A stretch of 64,000 nt of DNA from Pyruvatibacter mobilis (GTDB taxonomy: Bacteria > Pseudomonadota > Alphaproteobacteria > CGMCC-115125), in NCBI RefSeq assembly GCF_012848855.1, contig NZ_CP051630.1, positions 723,501-787,500 of the forward strand, written 5' to 3'. Positions 41,437-58,304 of this stretch are shown here, in pieces. Under the pieces are notes generated by a model, which was not told the DNA's origin, did no database searches, and saw nothing but the letters and a program-made list of their open reading frames with translations. The stretch's first letter is position 1; each line of letters begins with the position of its first letter. The position numbers and the translations under genes were made by a program.

Positions 41437-41512
<76 letters not shown>

Positions 41513-41739
41513 TTCCCTTCCCGAATTCGTGATGATGCTGAATGTGCGTGGTTCCTGCCGTGCACCGGAACAGGATTGTCGCGTGTCACCAATCTCCGCA
41601 AGGCCGATGGGCCACAAGGGTCAAGATGGCCACCGGCGCGGGCGTGCGCACAGCTCTCCCACTGTAATGGGGCGTGGGCACGGGTGGCATGGACCGCGCA
41701 GAATGCCGGGACAGGTGCCGCGGCCCGGACCGGTCTGGC

Positions 41740-42759
41740 TCAGTCGCCGGAGGCAACAGACAGGAACTTTACCTCGGGATAGGACGCGCTGAGGGAGACG
41801 GTTCGCTGCAGCGACTCTACTGCACTGACGACACGGGCACGGCCGTCGGCCTTGGCGGTATAGAGCGCCCGGTCGGCGCTCTCATAGATGGCGTCCAGCG
41901 ATTTATGGCCCCGGGACTCGGTAACGCCGATGCTGACCGTGGTGCGGATTTCCTGATTTCTGTATCTGCTGGCATGGGCCGACACCGCCTTGCAAATGCG
42001 GGTGGCGACAACGATTGACTGGTTGAGATCGGTTTCGGGAAGAAGGACGGCGAATTCCTCCCCGCCTATACGGCCGGCAAAATCGCATTTGCGAGTGGAG
42101 CGGCGAATGATGGCGGACAGATCCTTCAACACCCTGTCACCGCCCGGATGGCCGTAGCTGTCATTGATTTTCTTGAAGTAATCCAGATCGAGCAACATGA
42201 AGGCGAGGGGGCGCTGATAACGCCGGGCGCGCTCGAACTCGCGGTCGAATTCTTCAAACAGGGTGCGGCGGTTGAGCAGGCCCGTGAGCTCGTCGACCCG
42301 TGCCAGATGCCGCTCTTCCTGCAGGGCGATGTTCTTGCGCTTCAGGGTTTCGTTGAGTTCGGCAAAGCGATGGGAGGAGACGCCCTGATCACGGAACAGG
42401 CGCAGCATTATGTGCCCGGGAGGCGCGTTTTCATCCAGACGCATGAGATTGCCATGGATAACGAAGCGGCACCTGGTGTTGTCATTGCCCGGCAGGACAA
42501 TGGATGTCGGGATCAATCCGCTGACTGTGGCGCAGGTTTTCAGCAGCCGGTTGATCTTGTCTTTGCTGGTGGGAAGCAGCTCCTGGAGCAGAGTGTCCTG
42601 CGGCACCGGGCCGGCTGTGTCGGCCAGGCGTGTCTCGGCGAAAGCGTCGAGCCATTCGCGGGCTGCTTTGTTGTGGCACAAGACCGCTCCCGAGAGATCC
42701 ACAATGAATGTCGGGTCGGCTATGCCATTGAGGACTGATTTAATCGCCAGCGCGACCAT
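41740..42759 (-). CDS. PAS-GGDEF diguanylate cyclase
   Basis: A 339-residue protein. The N-terminal part (residues 5-130) looks like a PAS domain (SVLNGIADPTFIVDLSGAVLCHNKAAREWL), followed by a helical linker (LNETLKRKNIALQEERHLARVDELTGLLNRR). The GGDEF domain has LLDLDYFKKINDSYGHPGGDRVL and RIGGEEFAVLLPET near residue 232, an intact active site for making c-di-GMP. No RxxD I-site is seen five residues before GGEEF. The ATG at 42759 is 7 bp after the stop of the upstream sensor-like gene and has AGGGA before it, so the pair is an operon. Confidence 0.9.
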   Translation of the reverse strand: MVALAIKSVLNGIADPTFIVDLSGAVLCHNKAAREWLDAFAETRLADTAGPVPQDTLLQELLPTSKDKINRLLKTCATVSGLIPTSIVLPGNDNTRCRFVIHGNLMRLDENAPPGHIMLRLFRDQGVSSHRFAELNETLKRKNIALQEERHLARVDELTGLLNRRTLFEEFDREFERARRYQRPLAFMLLDLDYFKKINDSYGHPGGDRVLKDLSAIIRRSTRKCDFAGRIGGEEFAVLLPETDLNQSIVVATRICKAVSAHASRYRNQEIRTTVSIGVTESRGHKSLDAIYESADRALYTAKADGRARVVSAVESLQRTVSLSASYPEVKFLSVASGD

Positions 42760-42766
42760 GGTGTCC

Positions 42767-43327
42767 CTAGAGTGGCTGTTCGCTGAAATACTCGCGGCCG
42801 TCGATTTCAGACGCGGAGTCTGACGGGCGCAGGTGAACAATTACCCGGCACCTGCCGTCACCTGAAGCAATGGTTTCAGCGAGTTCAATTCGGGCATAGC
42901 CCAGATTTTCTGCGGCAATCTTGCCGAAGACGTTGGATGTCATCATGCACAGCGAGGTTCGTCCGTTGACGGATGAACCGAAGGGGCATTTTGAATTGAC
43001 GAGCACGATGGCTTCGTCGGTGATGCGCTCGATGGAGAAGCCGCCATCTATGCGGCGTTTGAGGTCCACGAGAACCTGGGCGACAAGTTCACGATCCATA
43101 AGATCGCGCCCGAAATGTTGCCGGTATTCCTGATTGATCTGCAGTCCGATCATGCCGCCAACGACGCTGATCATGCCGGAAGCTTCTTCAAGCCCGGCCA
43201 CATCTTCCAGGGTCTGGCTCCAGTTGGTCAGGAGCTGAACAAGGAAGTTTTCCTTGGACAGGCCGATTGGTGCAGCGTCGGGTAATTCATCGCCCATGCG
43301 CGCGACGTTGACTGTTTGTAATGCCAT
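42767..43327 (-). CDS. Methanogen output domain 1 family protein
   Basis: A 186-residue cytoplasmic protein. The region VLVDLKRRIDGGFSIERITDEAIVLVNSKCPFGSSVNGRTSLCMMTSNVFGKIAAENLGYARIEL matches the methanogen output domain 1 family, usually found as the output or sensory module of signal proteins. It has conserved cysteines in KCPFG and SLCMM that could bind a ligand or metal. GGAAGGAG lies before the ATG at 43327. The diguanylate cyclase gene follows directly, suggesting that this protein senses a signal for it. Confidence 0.75.
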   Translation of the reverse strand: MALQTVNVARMGDELPDAAPIGLSKENFLVQLLTNWSQTLEDVAGLEEASGMISVVGGMIGLQINQEYRQHFGRDLMDRELVAQVLVDLKRRIDGGFSIERITDEAIVLVNSKCPFGSSVNGRTSLCMMTSNVFGKIAAENLGYARIELAETIASGDGRCRVIVHLRPSDSASEIDGREYFSEQPL

Positions 43328-43685
43328 CTTTGTCTCCTTCCAGATGTCTGCGACGTCTCTTCAGGGACAGGCTGGGCGCACCGGCACTTCCGCCAGTAGC
43401 GGGTCAAGTCCAGTCAGGTCTTCAAGTATCCAGAGTCTGGCAGTCAGGTATTAATGGACAATTTCCACATCGAACTACCTGCGGTGACCTCTTGGAAAGG
43501 GATCGCGGGCCAAGTCGAATAGGTTCGAGCGCTTCCTGGCCCGAAAAAGAGGAGAACTCTGCAGTTTTCGCGTGTGGTCGGTAGCAGGGCTTGGCTGTGC
43601 AAAGAGTAAATCGCGGGCGATACGGACTATTTTTTGCGAAATTTTCTGGCCTGCTACGAGCGGATTCGAGTACCGCGCCTGCGTC
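43328..43685 (-). other. Intergenic region upstream of the methanogen-output-domain gene
   Basis: This 358-bp gap has lower G+C in its centre (TAATGGACAATTTCCACATC) and no supported gene. It must hold the promoter of the two-gene signalling operon. I find no riboswitch, tRNA or strong terminator in it. Confidence 0.4.
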
Positions 43686-44246
43686 TCATGCCATGCGCCA
43701 GAGCATCCATGCGCCGGTTGCGGCGAAGAGGAGGGCGCTGGCGATGCGGATGGCGGTCAGCGGCAGGTGGTCGACGGCCTTGTGGCCGAGCAGGACCGCC
43801 GGGACATTCGCCAGCAGCATGCCGAGCGTCGTGCCGAGGGTGACCAGCAGCACATCCTGATGCTGGGCGGCGAGGGCAATGGTGGCGATCTGGGTCTTGT
43901 CGCCGATCTCGGCGAGGAAGAACAGCACGAGCGTCGCCATGAAGGGGCCGCCATAGCGGTCGAGGCGGGCAGGGGCGTCCGGCTTGTCCGGGATCAGCAC
44001 CCACAGCGCCATGGCGAAAAAGCCCGCGGCCACCGCATAGGTAAACCATTGCGCATCCACCAGCATGGCGACCGTGCTGCCGGCCCAGGCGGCCGCGGCG
44101 TGGTTGGCGAGGGTGGCTGCGAGGATGCCTGCGATGATGGTGAGCGGCGCGCGGAAGCGGGCGGCCAGCAGCAGCGCCAGAAGCTGGGTCTTGTCGCCGA
44201 TTTCGGCGATGGCGACGAGGGCCGTGGCGCTGAGGAAGGCTTCCAT
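43686..44246 (-). CDS. TMEM165/GDT1 family cation transporter
   Basis: A 186-residue inner-membrane protein with six helices in two homologous halves. Each half carries the family signature ExGDKT: AEIGDKTQLLALLLAAR near residue 14 and AEIGDKTQIATIALAAQ near residue 111. Bacterial relatives export Mn2+ or exchange Ca2+/Mn2+ for protons. No yybP-ykoY manganese riboswitch is recognisable upstream. Confidence 0.92.
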   Translation of the reverse strand: MEAFLSATALVAIAEIGDKTQLLALLLAARFRAPLTIIAGILAATLANHAAAAWAGSTVAMLVDAQWFTYAVAAGFFAMALWVLIPDKPDAPARLDRYGGPFMATLVLFFLAEIGDKTQIATIALAAQHQDVLLVTLGTTLGMLLANVPAVLLGHKAVDHLPLTAIRIASALLFAATGAWMLWRMA

Positions 44247-44417
44247 GGGGCGTTGTTTCTTCTTGCTCTTGGCTCGGGATACCTGCGCACAGGCTTAGCA
44301 GGGTGCCTGCGCGGCAGATAGGCCATTGCTGCATGGGGGACGCGCTGTGGCTTCTTCTGGTGTAGGATCGTCGTGTGGGACATGAAGCTGCAAGGCCATG
44401 CCGGGGAGGGCAGGAGA

Positions 44418-45956
44418 ATGCGCGTTACCCATCGGAACAAGCCGTCTGCACGGCATCGGGGTCGCCATGTCATGCGGCCCTTGGGCTTTTGCGCAGTGAC
44501 CGTTCTCGCGGTGGGGCTGGGTGTGGCACTAGCTGCGCTGCCGGCGCGCGCGGAACGGGTGCCCGCGCATCTCGCGGGGCTGGCGGGGCAGGTCTATGAC
44601 GCGTCGGGCGATACGCTCAAGGCCGCCCGCAAGGCGGCCTCTCCCGAGAAGCAGGCGATTTTCGACAAGGCGATGAATGCCTTCAAGCGGGCGCAGGTGG
44701 GGTCATGGGGCGGCAAGCCGGTTGATCTCAGCAAGCCCGTGGCCGAGGTGGCGCGGCTGATGAAACTGACCCCGGGCGACGAGACCACGTTCGACATCAT
44801 TTCAGAACTAACCAAGGTGACCGGCGATCCGCTCGTCGAGATGGTGAAGTCGCATATGGGCGAGGATGCCTCGCGTGATGCGGTGCTTGCGGCCGCTGCC
44901 GCCGTGGAGCAGCTCAAGGCTGCCGGCGGGCTTGAGACCGGGCATGAAATCGCGCTGGAAGATGGTGACATGGTGCGCATCGACTGGTCGCCGCAGACCG
45001 CCGAACTGGTGTTGCAGGCGTTGCGGGAGAGCGATGGGGATGATGCTTACGAGTTCTCCCTGCCGGGCAAGACCGAAGTTGTGCGGGACGCGGAGACGGG
45101 GGCGCCGACGCTGATGGCGGCCCCCGACGAGAGCGCTGTGCCGCGGGCCTTTACCGCGCGTGAAATCCGCGACCGCATCGCGTCGATCTTCGGGCTGTGG
45201 GAGAACGAGAAGTTCCGCATGAAGATCACCGGTGGCAGCGCGGATGACGGGCGGGTGCGCCGCTCGCCTGCGATGATCGAAGCGGACATGACGCGGGTGC
45301 GTGAGGAACTGGACGAGCTTGGCAGCGCCAAGGAATTTGTCTGGGAGCACCCGGAGACGGCGGAGATCATCCGCCAGGAACGTTTCCGCCGCCTGGATGA
45401 GCCGTGGGAATACAAGGGCGAGCGGCAGATCGTGCCTGACGGGGACGCGCGCAAGGTGGCGCTGGAGCGTGAGCTGAAAACGCTTGAAGACGAGATGACC
45501 GGCAAGAACCTGCCGACCTCGGAACGTCTGGACCCGGTGGCATTCAACGCGGTGAAGGCAAGCGGGCAGGCGCGCCGGCTGACCATCGATTTCACCGAGA
45601 AGGACGGCCCGTGCTCCTATGTCTTCACCGACGCCTATTTCGATGGGCGCCGCGTGGTGGCACGGGGAACGCACAAGGAGCCGTGCTCGATGAACAAGTC
45701 CCTGCCACCGGCCATCTCCAACGAGCTGATCGCAAGCTGGTCACCGCCGCGCTGGCTGCTGCTGCGTGCGTCCTATGATGCGGACGGGGCGCTGGCGCTC
45801 GATGGGGCGCTGTGGGGCATGTATGTGGCCTATGATCCCACCGCGATGAGTGTGAACCGCATCTTCGATCCCCATGCGAGTGACGCGCTGAGCTTCCGCG
45901 ATGGTGGCGGCGGGGAACTCGTGGCGCTCGGCGCGGCGGAGACCGCCTGGCCATAG
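44418..45956 (+). CDS. Secreted protein of unknown function (512 aa)
   Basis: A 512-residue protein with a long n-region and signal peptide (cleavage near ALPARAERV). The ATG at 44418 follows GGGAGGGCAGGAG; 44472 is the alternative. The mature protein is soluble-looking and mixed alpha/beta. A helical part spans residues about 40-150, an acidic middle contains REELDELGSAKEFVW and a Glu/Arg-rich helix, and a C-terminal beta part has two cysteines (GPCSYVF and KEPCSMN) that could pair. I do not recognise a family. It is convergent, 9 bp apart, with the 1173 aa secreted protein, and the two may work together. Confidence 0.7.
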   Translation: MRVTHRNKPSARHRGRHVMRPLGFCAVTVLAVGLGVALAALPARAERVPAHLAGLAGQVYDASGDTLKAARKAASPEKQAIFDKAMNAFKRAQVGSWGGKPVDLSKPVAEVARLMKLTPGDETTFDIISELTKVTGDPLVEMVKSHMGEDASRDAVLAAAAAVEQLKAAGGLETGHEIALEDGDMVRIDWSPQTAELVLQALRESDGDDAYEFSLPGKTEVVRDAETGAPTLMAAPDESAVPRAFTAREIRDRIASIFGLWENEKFRMKITGGSADDGRVRRSPAMIEADMTRVREELDELGSAKEFVWEHPETAEIIRQERFRRLDEPWEYKGERQIVPDGDARKVALERELKTLEDEMTGKNLPTSERLDPVAFNAVKASGQARRLTIDFTEKDGPCSYVFTDAYFDGRRVVARGTHKEPCSMNKSLPPAISNELIASWSPPRWLLLRASYDADGALALDGALWGMYVAYDPTAMSVNRIFDPHASDALSFRDGGGGELVALGAAETAWP

Positions 45957-45965
45957 GGGGCGCTG

Positions 45966-48900
45966 TCAGTTCACCGGCGGGTTCACCCGGCGCATGGCGT
46001 AGACCACGTCGTAATCCATGTTCTGGATCATCCAGCGTTCGAAGTTCGACGCCTTCATCTTCAGAAGGCCGCCCTGGGTGGGGCAGAAGAACACCACGTC
46101 CTTGATGCGGCCGAACCTGTCCTCGACGATGGACTGCACCACCACGGCATGGCCGCCGGCGATCTGGCCCGGCTTGCGGATGCCGACCCGCAGCTTGTAG
46201 CCCTTCTGGATGGCGCTCTGCAGCATGGCGAGGGAATAGCGGCCCCGCCGCGCAGGGTTGAAGGCATGAACCTCATAGCCGCGGCTGCGCAGGTAGTAGG
46301 CGATGTCGCGGGCGCGGTAGCCGGTGAAATGGCCGAAGCCCGCATCGATGAAAGCGCGGGTCGCCGTGGCGGCGTCAAAGCCCTGGCCCACCTTGCGCTG
46401 GACGAAGGCCCGCAGCATCTCCCCATGCATGGCGCCTTCGTTGAGGATCAGCTTTTCCTCTTGGAAGATCATGTAGGCGGCGGAGAGGCCCTCGCAGGCA
46501 TGCTCATTGCCGATCTGGCAGAAATCCGCTCCCAGATTGCCCAACGGCTTGGCGTCATTGCCATACCAGTTGGCGACGCCCGTCTGCGGGTTGATCTCAT
46601 ATGCCCTTGTGCCGGGATTGTGCAGGCCGGTGCCGAGCGCTGAGCCCAGCGGGTCGCCGGCCTCGCGCACCTGGTCGGTGTAGCGCGGCTTTGCGGCGGC
46701 GGGCATTACCTCGTCCACCTCTTCGAGGGGAATGAGGTCGGTGACCGTCTGTTTCTTCTGGGCGGGGGTCAGGCTTGCGGGCAGGGCGTCCAGCGCGTCC
46801 TCGGCCAGTTCCGGCAGTTCCTCCACGGCACCGTCGGCGCGGCGGATGATGGTGCGAACGTCGTTGCCGATGGCCGGTGTGGTGGGGAAGTAGCGCGTCA
46901 CCTGCTTCATGGTCTTGTCGATGAGCGCGTCTGACCAGGAGACGTCATCAGCCACGTTGCGGGCGGCTGCGCGCCAGATGTCTGCGTCCACGTTCTTGCG
47001 GCCGAGGGTCACCACCTCGTCCAGCGCACCGGCCCATTCGACCGCCACCGACAGGGTGGACACCCACCAGGGCAGGGAATATTGCGGCACCTTGTTGCCG
47101 TGAATGTCGGTCTCGAAGAAGGCGATGGCGATGTCGTCGGCGCCGGACGCCATGGCGATGCCTTCATAGAGACCGAAGGCGAGCGACGTTCCGTAATCCT
47201 TCAGGGCACGGTTCAGCAGATTGCGGCTGACGCGGACCAGCACCCGGTCCAGGCACTGGCGCTCCAGCGTGTGCACCCAGTCGAGCCCGTCCTCGTCCAG
47301 CGCCTTCACCGCATTGATGCCTGTATGGCCGAGGGCCGCCAGGGCTTCGCGTTGGATGGCGTCACCAATTTCCTCGCTGGTGGCGGCGCGGCCGCGTATC
47401 TCCGGTGCCTGCAGGGAGAGGGCGTAGCTCTTGGAGCTCATGGTCCCGCAGATCGCCATCCAGGTGGCGGATGAAATCACATCGGGCTCGCCGAAGGCCG
47501 CCTCGCCACGGCGCACGGTGGTGTGGATCTCTTCAAGTTTGGTTTTGCTGAAAGCCAGCAGCCGGCGGCCATTGGGGCGGCCGAGATAGGCCTCGGCGAT
47601 CGCCATCCGGTGCAGGTCGGTCAGGTGCTCGGATTGGCTCAGGCGCTGGTAGTTGGCCAGCATGCGCAGGCGATCGCGTGCTTCGGCCTTGATGGCCTCG
47701 GGCTGGCTTGAGGCCAGCACACCGCCATAGGTGGCGGCCATGGTGGTCATCTGCTCTTCATACTGAGCAACTGCCCGCTGCACCCATGTGGCATAGACGG
47801 GAAACCGCTGGGACGCATCGCCATAGCGGAACTCCACCTCGTCGCCATTGTCCGGTAGCACGCTGAGGCGGGGGCCGGGCTCGACCTCGCCGACGCCGAG
47901 GGCTGAGACGATCCACCCGTAGATGCGGCGCGGCGGGGCGGCGAAGGGGGCGTATTCCCGCTCCGGTGCGTCACCGCCAATGGTGATGACGCCGCTATGG
48001 CCATAGATGACGCGATTGTCCGGCGTCACCCGCTGCCGGGTGAGGGTGAGCTTCGTGCTGCCGCCGGATTCAGATGTGACATCAACCGCAAGGCTCGACC
48101 CGATCTCCTTGGCGGACGACCCGCTTGTCACCACGTTGATGATCAGAGGCATGCCCCGGGTGATTGCCTCGAGGCTGCGCAGGGACGGGTCGTGGCGCTT
48201 GTTGGCAAGCCGCACGAACAGCAGGGTGGGGGCGGCAAGGCGGGTGGCGAGCACCGTGTCCTGGCGCGCCTCGAAGCGCTTGGGCGGGCCGTCGCCATCC
48301 ACCCGCGCCTCCTGCGGTGCGTCATCCTTCCAGCGCACCCGCCCGCGGAAGAAGTTGAAGGCGAGGGCCGGGTTGGCGGCACTGCCGCTTTCAAAGGCTT
48401 CGATGCGCCATACGAGGTCTCCTTCCACCGCCTTGCGCGCGGCGTCGGGGATCTCGGGGTTCATCTCCTCGGCCTTGGGAATGTAGCTGAAGGTGAGGCG
48501 GGGCTCTGTTGCCCGGTCACCGCTGCCGCCAAGGTCGTGATAGAGGCCCTGCCATACCCGGTCGGCTGTGTGCAGCTCCAGGGCGCGGCTGTCCGTGTCC
48601 GGTGTTTTCTGGACGACGACCATCACCTCGTCCGGTGCGTCATCAGGCCGCCAGATGCCCAAGCTCTGGCCGAGGCCCATTTCATAGTCAGCGCGGACGG
48701 GTTCTTCAGCGGGGGTATCCGTCCCGGCCTTATCGCCGCCGCCTGCATCGGCCAGCTTGTCTTCCTCTGGTTCGCGGGCCAGCACCTTGTCGAGGCGGGC
48801 GATCAGGTCATCCAGCAATGCCATGCGGTCACGGAAGACTTCCCCTTCCTTGAGTTGCTTGGATGCCTCGGCGCGGCGTTCCTGCGCGCGTTTGTCGTCG

Positions 48901-49487
48901 CCTGCGGCCAGGTCACGCCAGAATTCTGCCTGACGGCGCAGCTCGGCCTTCTCCTCGTCCGTGAGGCTTGCATTGATGCCCGCCAGAATGTCGTCGGCGC
49001 GCTGACGGTTCTTGTCAGCGTCCGCCTCGCTGCCATCGGCCAATTCGTTCCAGCCATCGGCGCGGCGCTGGTAGCTTTCTGCGCTGGCCTGTTCAACTTC
49101 GCGGCGGGAGGCAAGCTCGGTCTTGAGGTCACGGGCCTGGGCCTTTGCACCGTCCAGGTCTGAATAGGACTGGGTCTCGATGTCAGAGACCTTGCGCTTT
49201 TCCGCGCTGTAGATGTCGCTCGGGCGGGGCGTGGTGTCGGCGGTCTCACCCGGGGCCGGGTCCACCGGCATCGGCTCCATCTCTATCGGCTCGGGCAGGG
49301 GAAGCGGTTCGGGCAGAACGGGCTCGAATTCGGGCAGCACAAGCTCCGGCAGGTCGAGGTCCGGAAGCTCCTGCGCCCTGGCCTGTGTATGGGTGCCGAT
49401 ACCCATGCTCATGCCCATGCCGGTGCCCATGACTATGAGCATGAGTGTGGCGGCGACGGCTGTGCCCTTCATGGCGTGTCGGCCCAT
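45966..49487 (-). CDS. Large secreted protein with C-terminal Cys/His papain-like domain
   Basis: A 1173-residue exported protein. The signal peptide is Met-rich (LMLIVMGTGMGMSMGIG). After it comes a Pro/Glu/Leu linker built on L-P-E/D repeats (residues 38-75), a strongly charged coiled coil (about 90-235), a large beta-rich middle of unknown fold, and helices. The last 190 residues show a spacing reminiscent of papain-fold or C39-like peptidases: ACEGLSAAYMIF near residue 995, then GGHAVVVQSI near 1112 and VVFFCPTQGG near 1133. The ATG at 49487 is preceded by AGGGG; the longer frame starts at a TTG. Family unknown; the peptidase idea is inference. Confidence 0.65.
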   Translation of the reverse strand: MGRHAMKGTAVAATLMLIVMGTGMGMSMGIGTHTQARAQELPDLDLPELVLPEFEPVLPEPLPLPEPIEMEPMPVDPAPGETADTTPRPSDIYSAEKRKVSDIETQSYSDLDGAKAQARDLKTELASRREVEQASAESYQRRADGWNELADGSEADADKNRQRADDILAGINASLTDEEKAELRRQAEFWRDLAAGDDKRAQERRAEASKQLKEGEVFRDRMALLDDLIARLDKVLAREPEEDKLADAGGGDKAGTDTPAEEPVRADYEMGLGQSLGIWRPDDAPDEVMVVVQKTPDTDSRALELHTADRVWQGLYHDLGGSGDRATEPRLTFSYIPKAEEMNPEIPDAARKAVEGDLVWRIEAFESGSAANPALAFNFFRGRVRWKDDAPQEARVDGDGPPKRFEARQDTVLATRLAAPTLLFVRLANKRHDPSLRSLEAITRGMPLIINVVTSGSSAKEIGSSLAVDVTSESGGSTKLTLTRQRVTPDNRVIYGHSGVITIGGDAPEREYAPFAAPPRRIYGWIVSALGVGEVEPGPRLSVLPDNGDEVEFRYGDASQRFPVYATWVQRAVAQYEEQMTTMAATYGGVLASSQPEAIKAEARDRLRMLANYQRLSQSEHLTDLHRMAIAEAYLGRPNGRRLLAFSKTKLEEIHTTVRRGEAAFGEPDVISSATWMAICGTMSSKSYALSLQAPEIRGRAATSEEIGDAIQREALAALGHTGINAVKALDEDGLDWVHTLERQCLDRVLVRVSRNLLNRALKDYGTSLAFGLYEGIAMASGADDIAIAFFETDIHGNKVPQYSLPWWVSTLSVAVEWAGALDEVVTLGRKNVDADIWRAAARNVADDVSWSDALIDKTMKQVTRYFPTTPAIGNDVRTIIRRADGAVEELPELAEDALDALPASLTPAQKKQTVTDLIPLEEVDEVMPAAAKPRYTDQVREAGDPLGSALGTGLHNPGTRAYEINPQTGVANWYGNDAKPLGNLGADFCQIGNEHACEGLSAAYMIFQEEKLILNEGAMHGEMLRAFVQRKVGQGFDAATATRAFIDAGFGHFTGYRARDIAYYLRSRGYEVHAFNPARRGRYSLAMLQSAIQKGYKLRVGIRKPGQIAGGHAVVVQSIVEDRFGRIKDVVFFCPTQGGLLKMKASNFERWMIQNMDYDVVYAMRRVNPPVN

Positions 49488-49521
49488 GACCCTGATCCCC
49501 TGTTGGCAGTGCCTTGAAAGC

Positions 49522-49555
49522 AAAACGGCGGAAGCCCCGGTGAGGACTTCCGCCG
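49522..49555 (-). terminator. Rho-independent terminator after the VWA gene
   Basis: On the minus strand CGGCGGAAG and CTTCCGCCG form a 9-bp stem with a 12-nt loop, followed by TTTT. It separates the VWA gene from the 1173 aa protein gene, which therefore probably has its own promoter or depends on partial readthrough. Confidence 0.85.
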
Positions 49556-49583
49556 CGATGTCGCGTTGCGTGCCGGAAGCGTC

Positions 49584-50957
49584 CTATTCGGACACGGACA
49601 CGATTTCGACGGAGTCGATATTGATCAGCACTTCGCCGTCGGCCTGCTTCCACTTGCCGATCAGGAAGGCGATCTCGCCCGGCGCGCGCAGGGAAGTGAG
49701 CGGGTCGGTCTCGACGACGATCTTCGTGCCGTCTTCTGCGACCTCACCCCGGTCGAAGCTCACATGGTAGCTGCGGCCGCGCTTGTGCAGGGACAGGCGG
49801 ATTGGGCGGGTCTCATTCTCCGTCAGCTCACTTGTCAGGCGTTCCGCCGACATGCCGGCACCGCAGCCAATGGCATTGCCGATGACGGGGCGCTCGAACT
49901 TGGTGATCGTGCCGCCGGAGTTCTTGTAGATGCCGACGCCGGCATGGCTGCAGCCGCAGCATCCGGCATTGCTCCAGAAGCGGCCGGCAAGATAGTTGGC
50001 GCTATCCTTGAAGAGGCCGAAGGTGACGTTGTCCTTGCCGGTCTTGAACTCGCCGGTGAAGGTGAAGTGGGCATCCCAGTCACCCTTGGGCAGGTCGCGC
50101 TTCAGGACAATGAGGTTCTGCGGTGTGTCGCTGTTGAACCCGGCAATGGTGCTGTTGATCATTAGCAGATTGCCGTCCTCGACGATGAAGGCGTCGGGGT
50201 TCGGGTTGTTGACGACCCAGTCTTCGCTCAGCTCGCTGTCGAAGCCATCGAAAAAGAACTGCGCCAGGGTGGGTTCAGCGGGTTCAGGCTCGGGCTCCGG
50301 TTCCGGGGCGGGCTCGGGGGCGGCTTCCACCACTTCCTTCACCTCGGCCAGGGCCACCTTCAGCTCATCCGCATTGCCGGCATTGTAGTAGGAGCCGTTG
50401 CCCTTTTCCGCGATACACTCAAGCTGCTCGCGGGCGGCATCATCCACGTCGAAGCCGACGGCATGCACCTTGGTGTCCACACCGCCCTTGGCAAGGTCGG
50501 CAGCAACGGCACACGGGTCGCCGCTGCAGGTCTCGATGCCGTCGGAGATGAGGATGACGTTGTTGTTGGCGTCATTGGTGGGAAACACGCCTGCGGCGGC
50601 CTGCAGCGCACCGGCGATGGGCGTCTTGCCCTTGGGCTTCAGCTCGTTGAGCTTGGCAAGAAGCGCCTCCGGCGTTTCAGCACCAAGGCCCGACAGGACC
50701 TCGATGTCGTCGCAGGCGCCTTCGGAGCGGTGGCCATAGGCGAGAAGGCCCACCGTCGTGCCCTCCGCCACATTGGCCAGGAGATCTCCCATGACCTCCC
50801 GAGCCGTCTCAATCTTCGCCGTTCCGTCGATCTGGCCCCACATGGAGTTCGACGCATCGAGAATATACACAACATTGGTCGCGGCAGCTGCGGGCAGGGC
50901 AGCGGCTGTCAGACCGGCGGAAACCAGAAATGCCGAGATGGCGGCGCGAAAACGCAT
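49584..50957 (-). CDS. Secreted VWA-domain protein with C-terminal beta-sandwich
   Basis: A 457-residue exported protein. A signal peptide (residues 1-26) precedes a von Willebrand factor A domain with MIDAS motif DASNS (Asp34, Ser36, Ser38) and further metal-site motifs (GKTPIAGAL, ISDGIETC). A Pro-Glu repeat linker (PEPAPEPEPEPEPAEP) leads to a C-terminal domain (FDGFDSELSEDW ... SLHKRGRSYHVSFDRGE) resembling concanavalin/laminin-G-like folds. That domain carries an unusual GCCGCSHAG cluster. The second of two adjacent ATGs (50957) best fits GGGGAG. VWA-MIDAS proteins bind partners through metal; the partner here may be the neighbouring secreted protein. Confidence 0.82.
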   Translation of the reverse strand: MRFRAAISAFLVSAGLTAAALPAAAATNVVYILDASNSMWGQIDGTAKIETAREVMGDLLANVAEGTTVGLLAYGHRSEGACDDIEVLSGLGAETPEALLAKLNELKPKGKTPIAGALQAAAGVFPTNDANNNVILISDGIETCSGDPCAVAADLAKGGVDTKVHAVGFDVDDAAREQLECIAEKGNGSYYNAGNADELKVALAEVKEVVEAAPEPAPEPEPEPEPAEPTLAQFFFDGFDSELSEDWVVNNPNPDAFIVEDGNLLMINSTIAGFNSDTPQNLIVLKRDLPKGDWDAHFTFTGEFKTGKDNVTFGLFKDSANYLAGRFWSNAGCCGCSHAGVGIYKNSGGTITKFERPVIGNAIGCGAGMSAERLTSELTENETRPIRLSLHKRGRSYHVSFDRGEVAEDGTKIVVETDPLTSLRAPGEIAFLIGKWKQADGEVLINIDSVEIVSVSE

Positions 50958-51366
50958 CATTCTCTCCCCAAAATGGCGTGCACCCGGCAAAACCCTAACG
51001 GCGGGGTGGTGCACCGGCAATGGATGCAGACCCCGTCGAGGTCCCGGGCGAGCAATCGCTAAATCAGGAGTACCGCCAATAATTCAGGGTTTCATCATCA
51101 ATAGTGATGATGAAATGCCGATACGGCGAATTAGCGGGTCGATGGGCGAAAAAGTGGTCTTCCGGCATGCCGCTTCCGGTTTGATTGCCATGCGGGCCCG
51201 CTGAAATACGATGACGAACAGACGGTCGCCATTGTATCCTCTGGCCGAGTTCATTCGGACGATGTGTTGGGTCTGCGGCAGGTATCAGCCGCGATTGCTC
51301 GGGGGAGCAATAGGCCGTCCATATTCGGTGCGTGGCAGGCGGTGACCCTGGCCACGGCGTAGGGCT
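50958..51366. promoter_or_regulatory. Divergent intergenic region with an 11-bp perfect palindrome
   Basis: This 409-bp region separates the VWA gene from the divergent antiporter gene. At 51090-51115 it holds TTTCATCATCA-ATAG-TGATGATGAAA, a perfect 11-bp AT-rich inverted repeat 133 bp upstream of the VWA start. Its low G+C stands out sharply from the surroundings and suggests an operator. No gene is supported here. Confidence 0.5.
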
Positions 51367-57808: not shown

Positions 57809-57914
57809 TCCGCGACTTGCAGACGAGGCGCATGCGGCCCGTTGCTGAAAAGCCGCTTTTAAGGATCGCCGGCGCGCCATGGCTTGCGCGCGCGGGGAGG
57901 GCACGGCTAAAAGC

Positions 57915-58120
57915 GGGGCGACCACCGGTTCGCTGGAGACAGCGATGAAAAGGGAATGCGGTGCGGCCTCCTGCGAGGCCCAGTCCGCAGCTGCCCCCGC
58001 AACTGTGAGCGGTGAGCGCGAAGGCCACAACGCCACTGGCATCCGTCCGGAGATATCCGGCAGCCGGGAAGGCGGTCTTCACATGGCGCTTTGACCCGCA
58101 AGCCAGGAGACCTGCCGGTG
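57915..58120 (+). promoter_or_regulatory. Cobalamin riboswitch
   Basis: The conserved elements of the B12 riboswitch occur in order: AAAAGGGAATGCGGT (57947-57962), GCTGCCCCCGCAACTGT including the B12 box (57990-58006), GCCACTGG (58032-58039), CGGGAAGG (58064-58071) and AGCCAGGAGACCTGCCGG (58101-58118). B12 binding is expected to shut off the downstream uptake operon. The 184 nt between the riboswitch and btuB would hold the expression platform; I cannot identify a clear terminator there, so control of translation is possible. Confidence 0.95.
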
Positions 58121-58304
58121 CGAGCATCGCCTAAGACGGCGCGCGGTGGGCGCGGGTCTTGCGGAGTTCCGCCTGGCGTTTGCGTTTTAACTGAAACGTG
58201 GCGCCCGGGCAGGCGGACGATGTGTTTTCCGACACTTCTCCTTCCTCGGGCCATCCGGCGTGGCTTCAGGCCTGCCGGGTCTTGAGAAGAGGGGATTGGG
58301 GCTC

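What the first reader, a model, noticed from the sequence alone, without database searches (positions are those of the whole stretch)
44418..50957. Three-gene block of large secreted proteins with no recognised system
Seen: three exported proteins lie together, a 512 aa protein convergent with a 1173 aa protein, and upstream of the latter a VWA-MIDAS protein. None has an enzyme neighbour that explains it. The 1173 aa protein combines a Pro/Glu linker, a coiled coil and a Cys/His C-terminal domain. Inference: the VWA protein could be a metal-dependent docking partner, and the block could be a periplasmic or surface protein-processing system.
Basis: partly seen in the sequence, partly recalled or inferred. 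Interest (0 to 1): 0.62.

Follow-up and report, generated by a model that had tools for sequence, protein, structure and literature searches.

The report
Mobile exported cysteine-protease-like cassette with VWA partner
Three neighbouring genes of a marine, alga-associated kind of bacterium travel together between chromosome sites and encode exported proteins, one ending in a papain-like cysteine-protease fold; they may form a small secreted protein-cutting or rival-inhibiting system, but what it acts on is unknown.

Summary
In detail: three exported proteins, A (512 aa), B (1173 aa) and a VWA protein with complete MIDAS residues; A and B are tail-to-tail. Apart from the VWA domain nothing matches Pfam, NCBIfam, PHROGs or PADLOC. 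The block is one inherited unit. A and B occur together in two of four genus members and in no other of 357-385 alphaproteobacterial genomes searched. The trio keeps order and orientation at two chromosomal sites, and its VWA copy follows the trio, not the genome. In the other two species a sister VWA gene precedes a different exported pair, X-Y; X-, Y- and VWA-like genes also lie together in another family. So VWA is constant and the large partners swap. B's C-terminal ~185 residues model as a papain-like cysteine peptidase (best Foldseek hit a papain-like toxin/immunity pair; VIA Z 9.6 to a C39-like domain), with conserved Cys1010, His1125 and Cys1147. Best reading: an accessory conflict or surface-processing cassette with B as thiol enzyme, A as dedicated exported partner, VWA as docking protein. 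Fold (from a modest-confidence model) and unit status are supported; enzyme activity, the roles of A and VWA, and the target are inferred.

The parts
44418..45956 (+). Gene A: exported 512 aa protein, no known family; the true start may be codon 19 (44472)
   Evidence: ORF, signal-like stretch, orthologue in G002, no family hit
45903..45953 (+). A C-terminal tail GGGGELVALGAAETAWP, 15 of 17 identical in G002: possible double-glycine-type cleavage site (inference)
   Evidence: Alignment; conservation only modestly above the rest of A
45966..49487 (-). Gene B: exported 1173 aa protein (linker, coiled coil, central region, papain-like C-terminus)
   Evidence: Residue numbers in this report count from the TTG at 49523
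49224..49367 (-). Pro/Glu linker of B, about residues 53-100; similar low-complexity linker in X
   Evidence: hhalign to X linker E 0.00025
45984..46526 (-). Papain-like cysteine peptidase-like domain of B, about residues 1000-1180; Cys1010 at 46494-46496, His1125 at 46149-46151, Cys1147 at 46083-46085
   Evidence: AF2 model pLDDT 61, pTM 0.60; Foldseek, VIA-align; residues conserved in both orthologues
49525..49556 (-). Terminator-like hairpin between VWA and B, conserved at the same place in G002 with a paired change
   Evidence: RNA fold z-scores -5.4 and -5.2
49584..50957 (-). VWA gene: exported VWA-MIDAS protein with a Pro/Glu linker and a C-terminal domain of about 225 residues in no Pfam family (beta jelly-roll suspected, not shown)
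50358..50876 (-). VWA domain, residues 49-221
   Evidence: Pfam PF00092 match
41437..41512 (+). tRNA-Lys (ctt) at the start of the variable interval that holds the block
   Evidence: same tRNA in the matching interval of G003

Best explanation
The three genes are one horizontally moving accessory cassette of exported proteins. B is a large Sec-type exported protein whose N-terminal linker, coiled coil and central region carry or anchor it, and whose C-terminal papain-like domain is a thiol enzyme (peptidase or amidase): Cys1010 the nucleophile, His1125 the base, Cys1147 in the place of the usual Asp/Asn that orients the His. A is its dedicated exported partner, most likely an inhibitor or immunity protein acting in the same compartment. 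VWA is a constant, metal-dependent docking or anchoring protein serving swappable large partners (A-B here, X-Y in sister species). Supported by data: signal-like N-termini, papain-like fold (model), conserved Cys/His/Cys, exact A-B co-occurrence, the trio at two sites, swapped partners next to VWA. Inferred: catalytic activity, A as inhibitor, VWA as dock, and antagonism of other cells as the purpose.
For: AF2 model of B residues 950-1185 matches a papain-like toxin/immunity pair, ComA C39 peptidase and a CdiA-CT toxin in Foldseek (E 7.3e-4 to 2.2e-3), and HlyB C39-like, phytochelatin synthase, staphopain and PCAT1 in VIA-align (Z 9.6-8.5). A and B have the same distribution: G000 and G002 only. 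The trio sits at two different sites, each lacking it in a relative. VWA is 83% identical between the two carriers but 72% between G002 and G003, although the antiporter gene is 91% identical between G002 and G003. In G001/G003 VWA precedes X-Y; in G341 it faces Y.
Against: The model rests on two sequences; the stretch around Cys1010 has pLDDT below 50 and active-site distances were not measured. A has no readable fold (pLDDT 41). Known immunity genes of papain-like toxins are short (79-239 aa) and follow the toxin gene (PMC12136450); A is 512 aa and convergent. No recognised delivery system was found with the block. B's C-terminus is not seen to vary while its N-terminus stays constant, which polymorphic toxins would show.
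Confidence: 0.4

Rival explanations
1. Surface or periplasmic processing system, near the first reader's idea: B is a maturation peptidase and A its substrate, trimmed at the conserved GGGG motif near its C-terminus, as C39 peptidases cut after double glycine; VWA holds the complex.
For: C39-like fold; ComA, LahT and Cpe1 cut at double glycine (PMC12136450); A ends in GGGGE(L/M)VALGAAET(A/M)WP in both orthologues.
Against: Tail conservation is only modestly above A's 63-65% average; a glycine run is common; restriction to two species and movement between sites fit an accessory conflict function better than core processing.
Confidence: 0.25
2. Adhesin or cell-surface attachment locus: the large proteins are structural surface proteins and the papain-like domain of B is inactive (as in HlyB) or used for binding only; VWA binds matrix or algal polymers.
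For: VWA domains often bind ligands through MIDAS (general knowledge); the best VIA match is the C39-like domain of HlyB, which from general knowledge lacks the active Cys; G341 has a CsgG-family gene near its X-Y-VWA locus; the genus is known from algal cultures (PMC4110880).
Against: Cys1010 and His1125 are kept in both orthologues; no adhesin domain was detected in A or B.
Confidence: 0.2
3. VWA is a bystander: only A-B form the functional pair, and VWA's place beside it is chance or shared mobility.
For: VWA of this kind occurs without A-B in seven other genomes found, without a large exported neighbour in G018 and G597; a terminator-like hairpin separates it from B.
Against: VWA follows A-B rather than the genome tree, and in G001/G003 and G341 it again lies beside a large exported pair.
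Confidence: 0.15

Closest known systems
Cpe1/Cpi1 papain-like cysteine protease toxin and immunity pair (PDB 9L5U; PMC12136450)
   Same: C-terminal papain-like C39-type fold at the end of a longer secreted protein, with a dedicated neighbour; best Foldseek match
   Different: Cpe1 goes with T6SS or CDI delivery, has an Asp/Asn third residue and a small immunity gene behind it; B has a signal peptide, Cys in the third place, and a large exported convergent partner
C39 peptidase domains (ComA, PCAT1, HlyB C39-like)
   Same: Fold and order of Cys, His and third residue
   Different: Those sit at the N-terminus of ABC transporters in the cytosol; B's is at the C-terminus of an exported protein without a transporter
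Tse1/Tae1 peptidoglycan amidase effectors
   Same: Papain-like fold with Cys as third active-site residue (PMC10318531); a weak Foldseek match (4fgd, E 0.1)
   Different: Small stand-alone T6SS effectors; no sequence match to B
Polymorphic toxin systems (PMC3482391)
   Same: Large exported proteins ending in a papain-like domain, next to a partner gene and in a variable region
   Different: No known trafficking, repeat, pre-toxin or immunity domain was detected; no family of shared N-termini with changing C-termini
VWA-MoxR conflict systems (PMC7159879)
   Same: A VWA protein beside variable partners
   Different: Here VWA is exported, and no MoxR-type ATPase was noticed among the neighbours

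Membership tests
Papain-like cysteine peptidase superfamily (B C-terminal domain) | Papain-like fold: Cys at the start of a helix, His at the start of a strand, third residue on the next strand | tested here: met
   Model; Foldseek and VIA-align lists dominated by papain-like structures; modest model confidence
Papain-like cysteine peptidase superfamily (B C-terminal domain) | Conserved catalytic Cys and His | tested here: met
   Cys1010 and His1125 in both orthologues; geometry not measured
Papain-like cysteine peptidase superfamily (B C-terminal domain) | Thiol hydrolase activity | not testable with these tools
   Needs biochemistry
C39 peptidase family proper (PF03412) | Sequence match to the family | tested here: not met
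   No Pfam match up to E 10 for either orthologue's domain
VWA domain proteins | Pfam VWA match with full MIDAS (DxSxS, T, D) | tested here: met
Polymorphic toxin systems | Known trafficking, releasing or toxin domain profiles | tested here: not met
   No match for A or B in Pfam, NCBIfam, PHROGs or PADLOC
Polymorphic toxin systems | Constant N-terminal part with exchangeable C-terminal toxin domains | tested here: inconclusive
   Only two B orthologues, alike throughout; Y of G341 is related at the C-terminus too
Polymorphic toxin systems | Cognate immunity protein that neutralises the toxin | not testable with these tools
   A co-occurs exactly with B, but binding or protection needs experiment
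VWA-MoxR conflict systems | Adjacent MoxR-type AAA+ ATPase | tested here: inconclusive
   None seen when reading the neighbouring ORFs; neighbours were not scanned against profiles

The most novel reading that the evidence does not exclude
A new class of exported conflict or processing cassette in Alphaproteobacteria: a constant VWA docking protein paired with interchangeable large exported partners (B, with a Cys-His-Cys papain-like head, plus A; or X-Y), moving as units between chromosomal sites and absent from profile libraries.
Probability: 0.25. Interest if true: 0.75.

Novelty: new variant of a known kind. Interest (0 to 1): 0.5.

Why it matters
If true, it adds an exported, VWA-associated form of papain-like enzyme to the known bacterial conflict and surface-processing systems, in bacteria found with algae. 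It gives a defined testable pair (B's domain and A) and a rule, constant VWA with swapped large partners, for finding more such loci that profile libraries miss.

Tried and rejected
(1) Family searches of A and B in Pfam, NCBIfam, PHROGs and PADLOC, of X and Y in Pfam and in part NCBIfam, and of B in the PDB by sequence: nothing beyond VWA and chance-level hits. (2) B in phages and plasmids, A in plasmids, both in viral contigs: no meaningful match. (3) Homology of B or A with X or Y, and of A with B: none by hhalign except the low-complexity linker shared by B and X. A motif after that linker looked shared, but 47 of 500 shuffles did as well, so dropped. (4) Fold of A: AF2 with two sequences failed (pLDDT 41), so no fold search was made. 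(5) A copy of the tRNA-Lys 3' end as an insertion scar: none in the window (one search used a wrong probe). (6) VWA-B as one simple operon: doubtful because of the conserved hairpin. (7) Y with a variable C-terminus, suspected: the alignment shows the C-termini are related as well. (8) Fold search among viral proteins: three matches below E 1e-3, none informative. (9) PBP2 as a further species-tree gene: no orthologue found in the incomplete G002.

Full report
What is there. All three begin with a signal-peptide-like stretch and have no further clear membrane segment by hydropathy. A and B are tail-to-tail, 9 nt apart. VWA has the full set of MIDAS residues (D55, S57, S59, T133, D160), invariant in four species. 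Apart from the VWA domain nothing here is in Pfam, NCBIfam, PHROGs or PADLOC.

Where it occurs. Four genomes of the window's genus are held; the one named record is 'Candidatus Phaeomarinobacter', a genus described from brown-algal cultures (PMC4110880). B and A are in this genome and in G002 (61% and 64% identity), not in G001 or G003, and in no other of 385 (B) or 357 (A) genomes of the class; the further hits at E 0.003-0.01 are short and chance-like. A scan of 84,980 species for two short conserved peptides of B found only the G002 contig; it would miss distant relatives. VWA is in all four genus members. Its C-terminal domain is in 8 of 385 class genomes and, in a phylum-wide sample, in one more of the class (G597) and as weak partial matches in one other family.

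One unit at two sites. In the window the block lies between tRNA-Lys and an antiporter gene (Kef-type by inspection). On the far side of the tRNA are the mre/PBP2/rodA genes, on the far side of the antiporter a USP gene, an oxidoreductase and a P450. G003 has the same flanks and the tRNA, but other genes inside (ethanolamine ammonia-lyase subunits and an AhpC-like protein by inspection). G002 has the AhpC-like gene beside the antiporter, like G003, and carries VWA-B-A elsewhere, between a TetR/GMC-oxidoreductase pair and an RTX-like gene; in G001 the TetR/GMC site lacks the block. The trio thus kept order and orientation at two sites. The antiporter is 91% identical between G002 and G003 and 77-79% between G000 and either; USP is 57% against 46-48%. 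VWA instead is 83% between G000 and G002 and 72% between G002 and G003. So VWA goes with A-B and not with the genome. The species order rests on two adjacent genes and one gene order, because G002 is 81% complete.

Swapped partners. In G001 and G003 the VWA gene is followed on its strand by X (657-665 aa) and Y (1348 aa), which also have signal-like N-termini. In G341, of another family, X-like and Y-like genes face a VWA gene of the same kind, with a CsgG-family protein (PF03783, E 4.7e-28) and a YD/RHS-like protein (by inspection) nearby. G002 has an X-Y pair without VWA beside it. VWA neighbours elsewhere vary: a HExxH-type large protein with its own VWA motif in G082, a second, VWA-less protein of the C-terminal-domain kind in G368 and G597, nothing obvious in G018. 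B and Y are not detectably related; B and X share only a Pro/Glu linker.

The C-terminus of B. From two sequences AF2 gave pLDDT 61 and pTM 0.60 for residues 950-1185. Cys1010 comes just before a helix, His1125 starts a strand, and Cys1147 ends the next strand: the places of the papain-like Cys, His and third residue. Foldseek finds a papain-like toxin/immunity pair (9L5U, E 7.3e-4), the ComA C39 peptidase (8.2e-4), a ubiquitin clippase and a CdiA-CT toxin. VIA-align gives Z 9.6 (120 residues, 2.9 A) to the C39-like domain of HlyB, and the listed rows are papain-like or related cysteine peptidases throughout. Z near 8 can be middling by the tool's own note; the uniform list and the motif positions make me hold the fold at about 0.85. 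The stretch around Cys1010 is below pLDDT 50, and active-site distances were not measured. Cys as the third residue has a precedent in Tae1/Tse1 amidases (PMC10318531).

Transcription. A 14-16 bp hairpin followed by a T-rich tail lies between VWA and B in both genomes (z -5.4 and -5.2), with a paired change GGAAG/CTTCC to GGGAG/CTCCC. VWA and B may be only partly co-transcribed.

How it may work. I favour an accessory cassette with B as exported thiol enzyme, A as its dedicated exported partner (inhibitor rather than substrate), and VWA as metal-dependent dock for interchangeable partners (0.4). A processing system in which B cuts A at its conserved GGGG tail is the main rival (0.25). A purely adhesive role (0.2) and VWA as bystander (0.15) remain. 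Papain-like domains serve both as toxins and as releasing peptidases in polymorphic toxins (PMC3482391), so the fold alone does not decide.

Verdict. Observation confirmed, interpretation partly supported. It is a new variant of a known kind: a papain-like domain in an unfamiliar, mobile, exported cassette with a VWA partner.

Noticed in passing
L014 10023-12020 and L015 7207-9180: X differs far more between G001 and G003 (68% aa, dS about 1.8-1.95) than Y and the flanking genes (dS about 0.4-0.5), as if one X allele had been replaced by recombination.
   Followed up: partly
window 49525-49556; L016 7163-7197: Strong conserved hairpin with T-rich tail between VWA and B, with a compensatory pair change; absent from the VWA-X gap of G003.
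   Followed up: partly
L024 2-4273: Next to the X-Y-VWA locus of G341 lie a CsgG-family gene and a Pro-rich YD/RHS-like protein: possibly a larger secretion or conflict island.
   Followed up: no
L025 6521-9310: G002 carries a second X-Y pair without VWA beside it; Y is cut by the contig end.
   Followed up: no
L037 9022-15561: In G082 a VWA gene of this kind converges with a 557 aa exported protein and an 1122 aa protein with a HExxH-like motif and its own VWA-like motif.
   Followed up: no
L038 2299-4510 and L061 3665-5946: In G368 and G597 the VWA gene has a neighbour made of its C-terminal domain alone, which suggests a stand-alone domain family without a Pfam model.
   Followed up: no
window 41437-51366; L043 8500-11800: The interval from tRNA-Lys to the antiporter is a variable region in the genus: different gene content in the window and G003. 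No copy of the tRNA end was found.
   Followed up: partly
window 41740-43327: A GGDEF protein lies directly after a small protein that looks like a haem-NO-binding sensor (by inspection): a possible NO or redox-sensing cyclic-di-GMP pair.
   Followed up: no
window 57909-58133: Cobalamin riboswitch (Rfam RF00174) upstream of a TonB-receptor-like gene.
   Followed up: no
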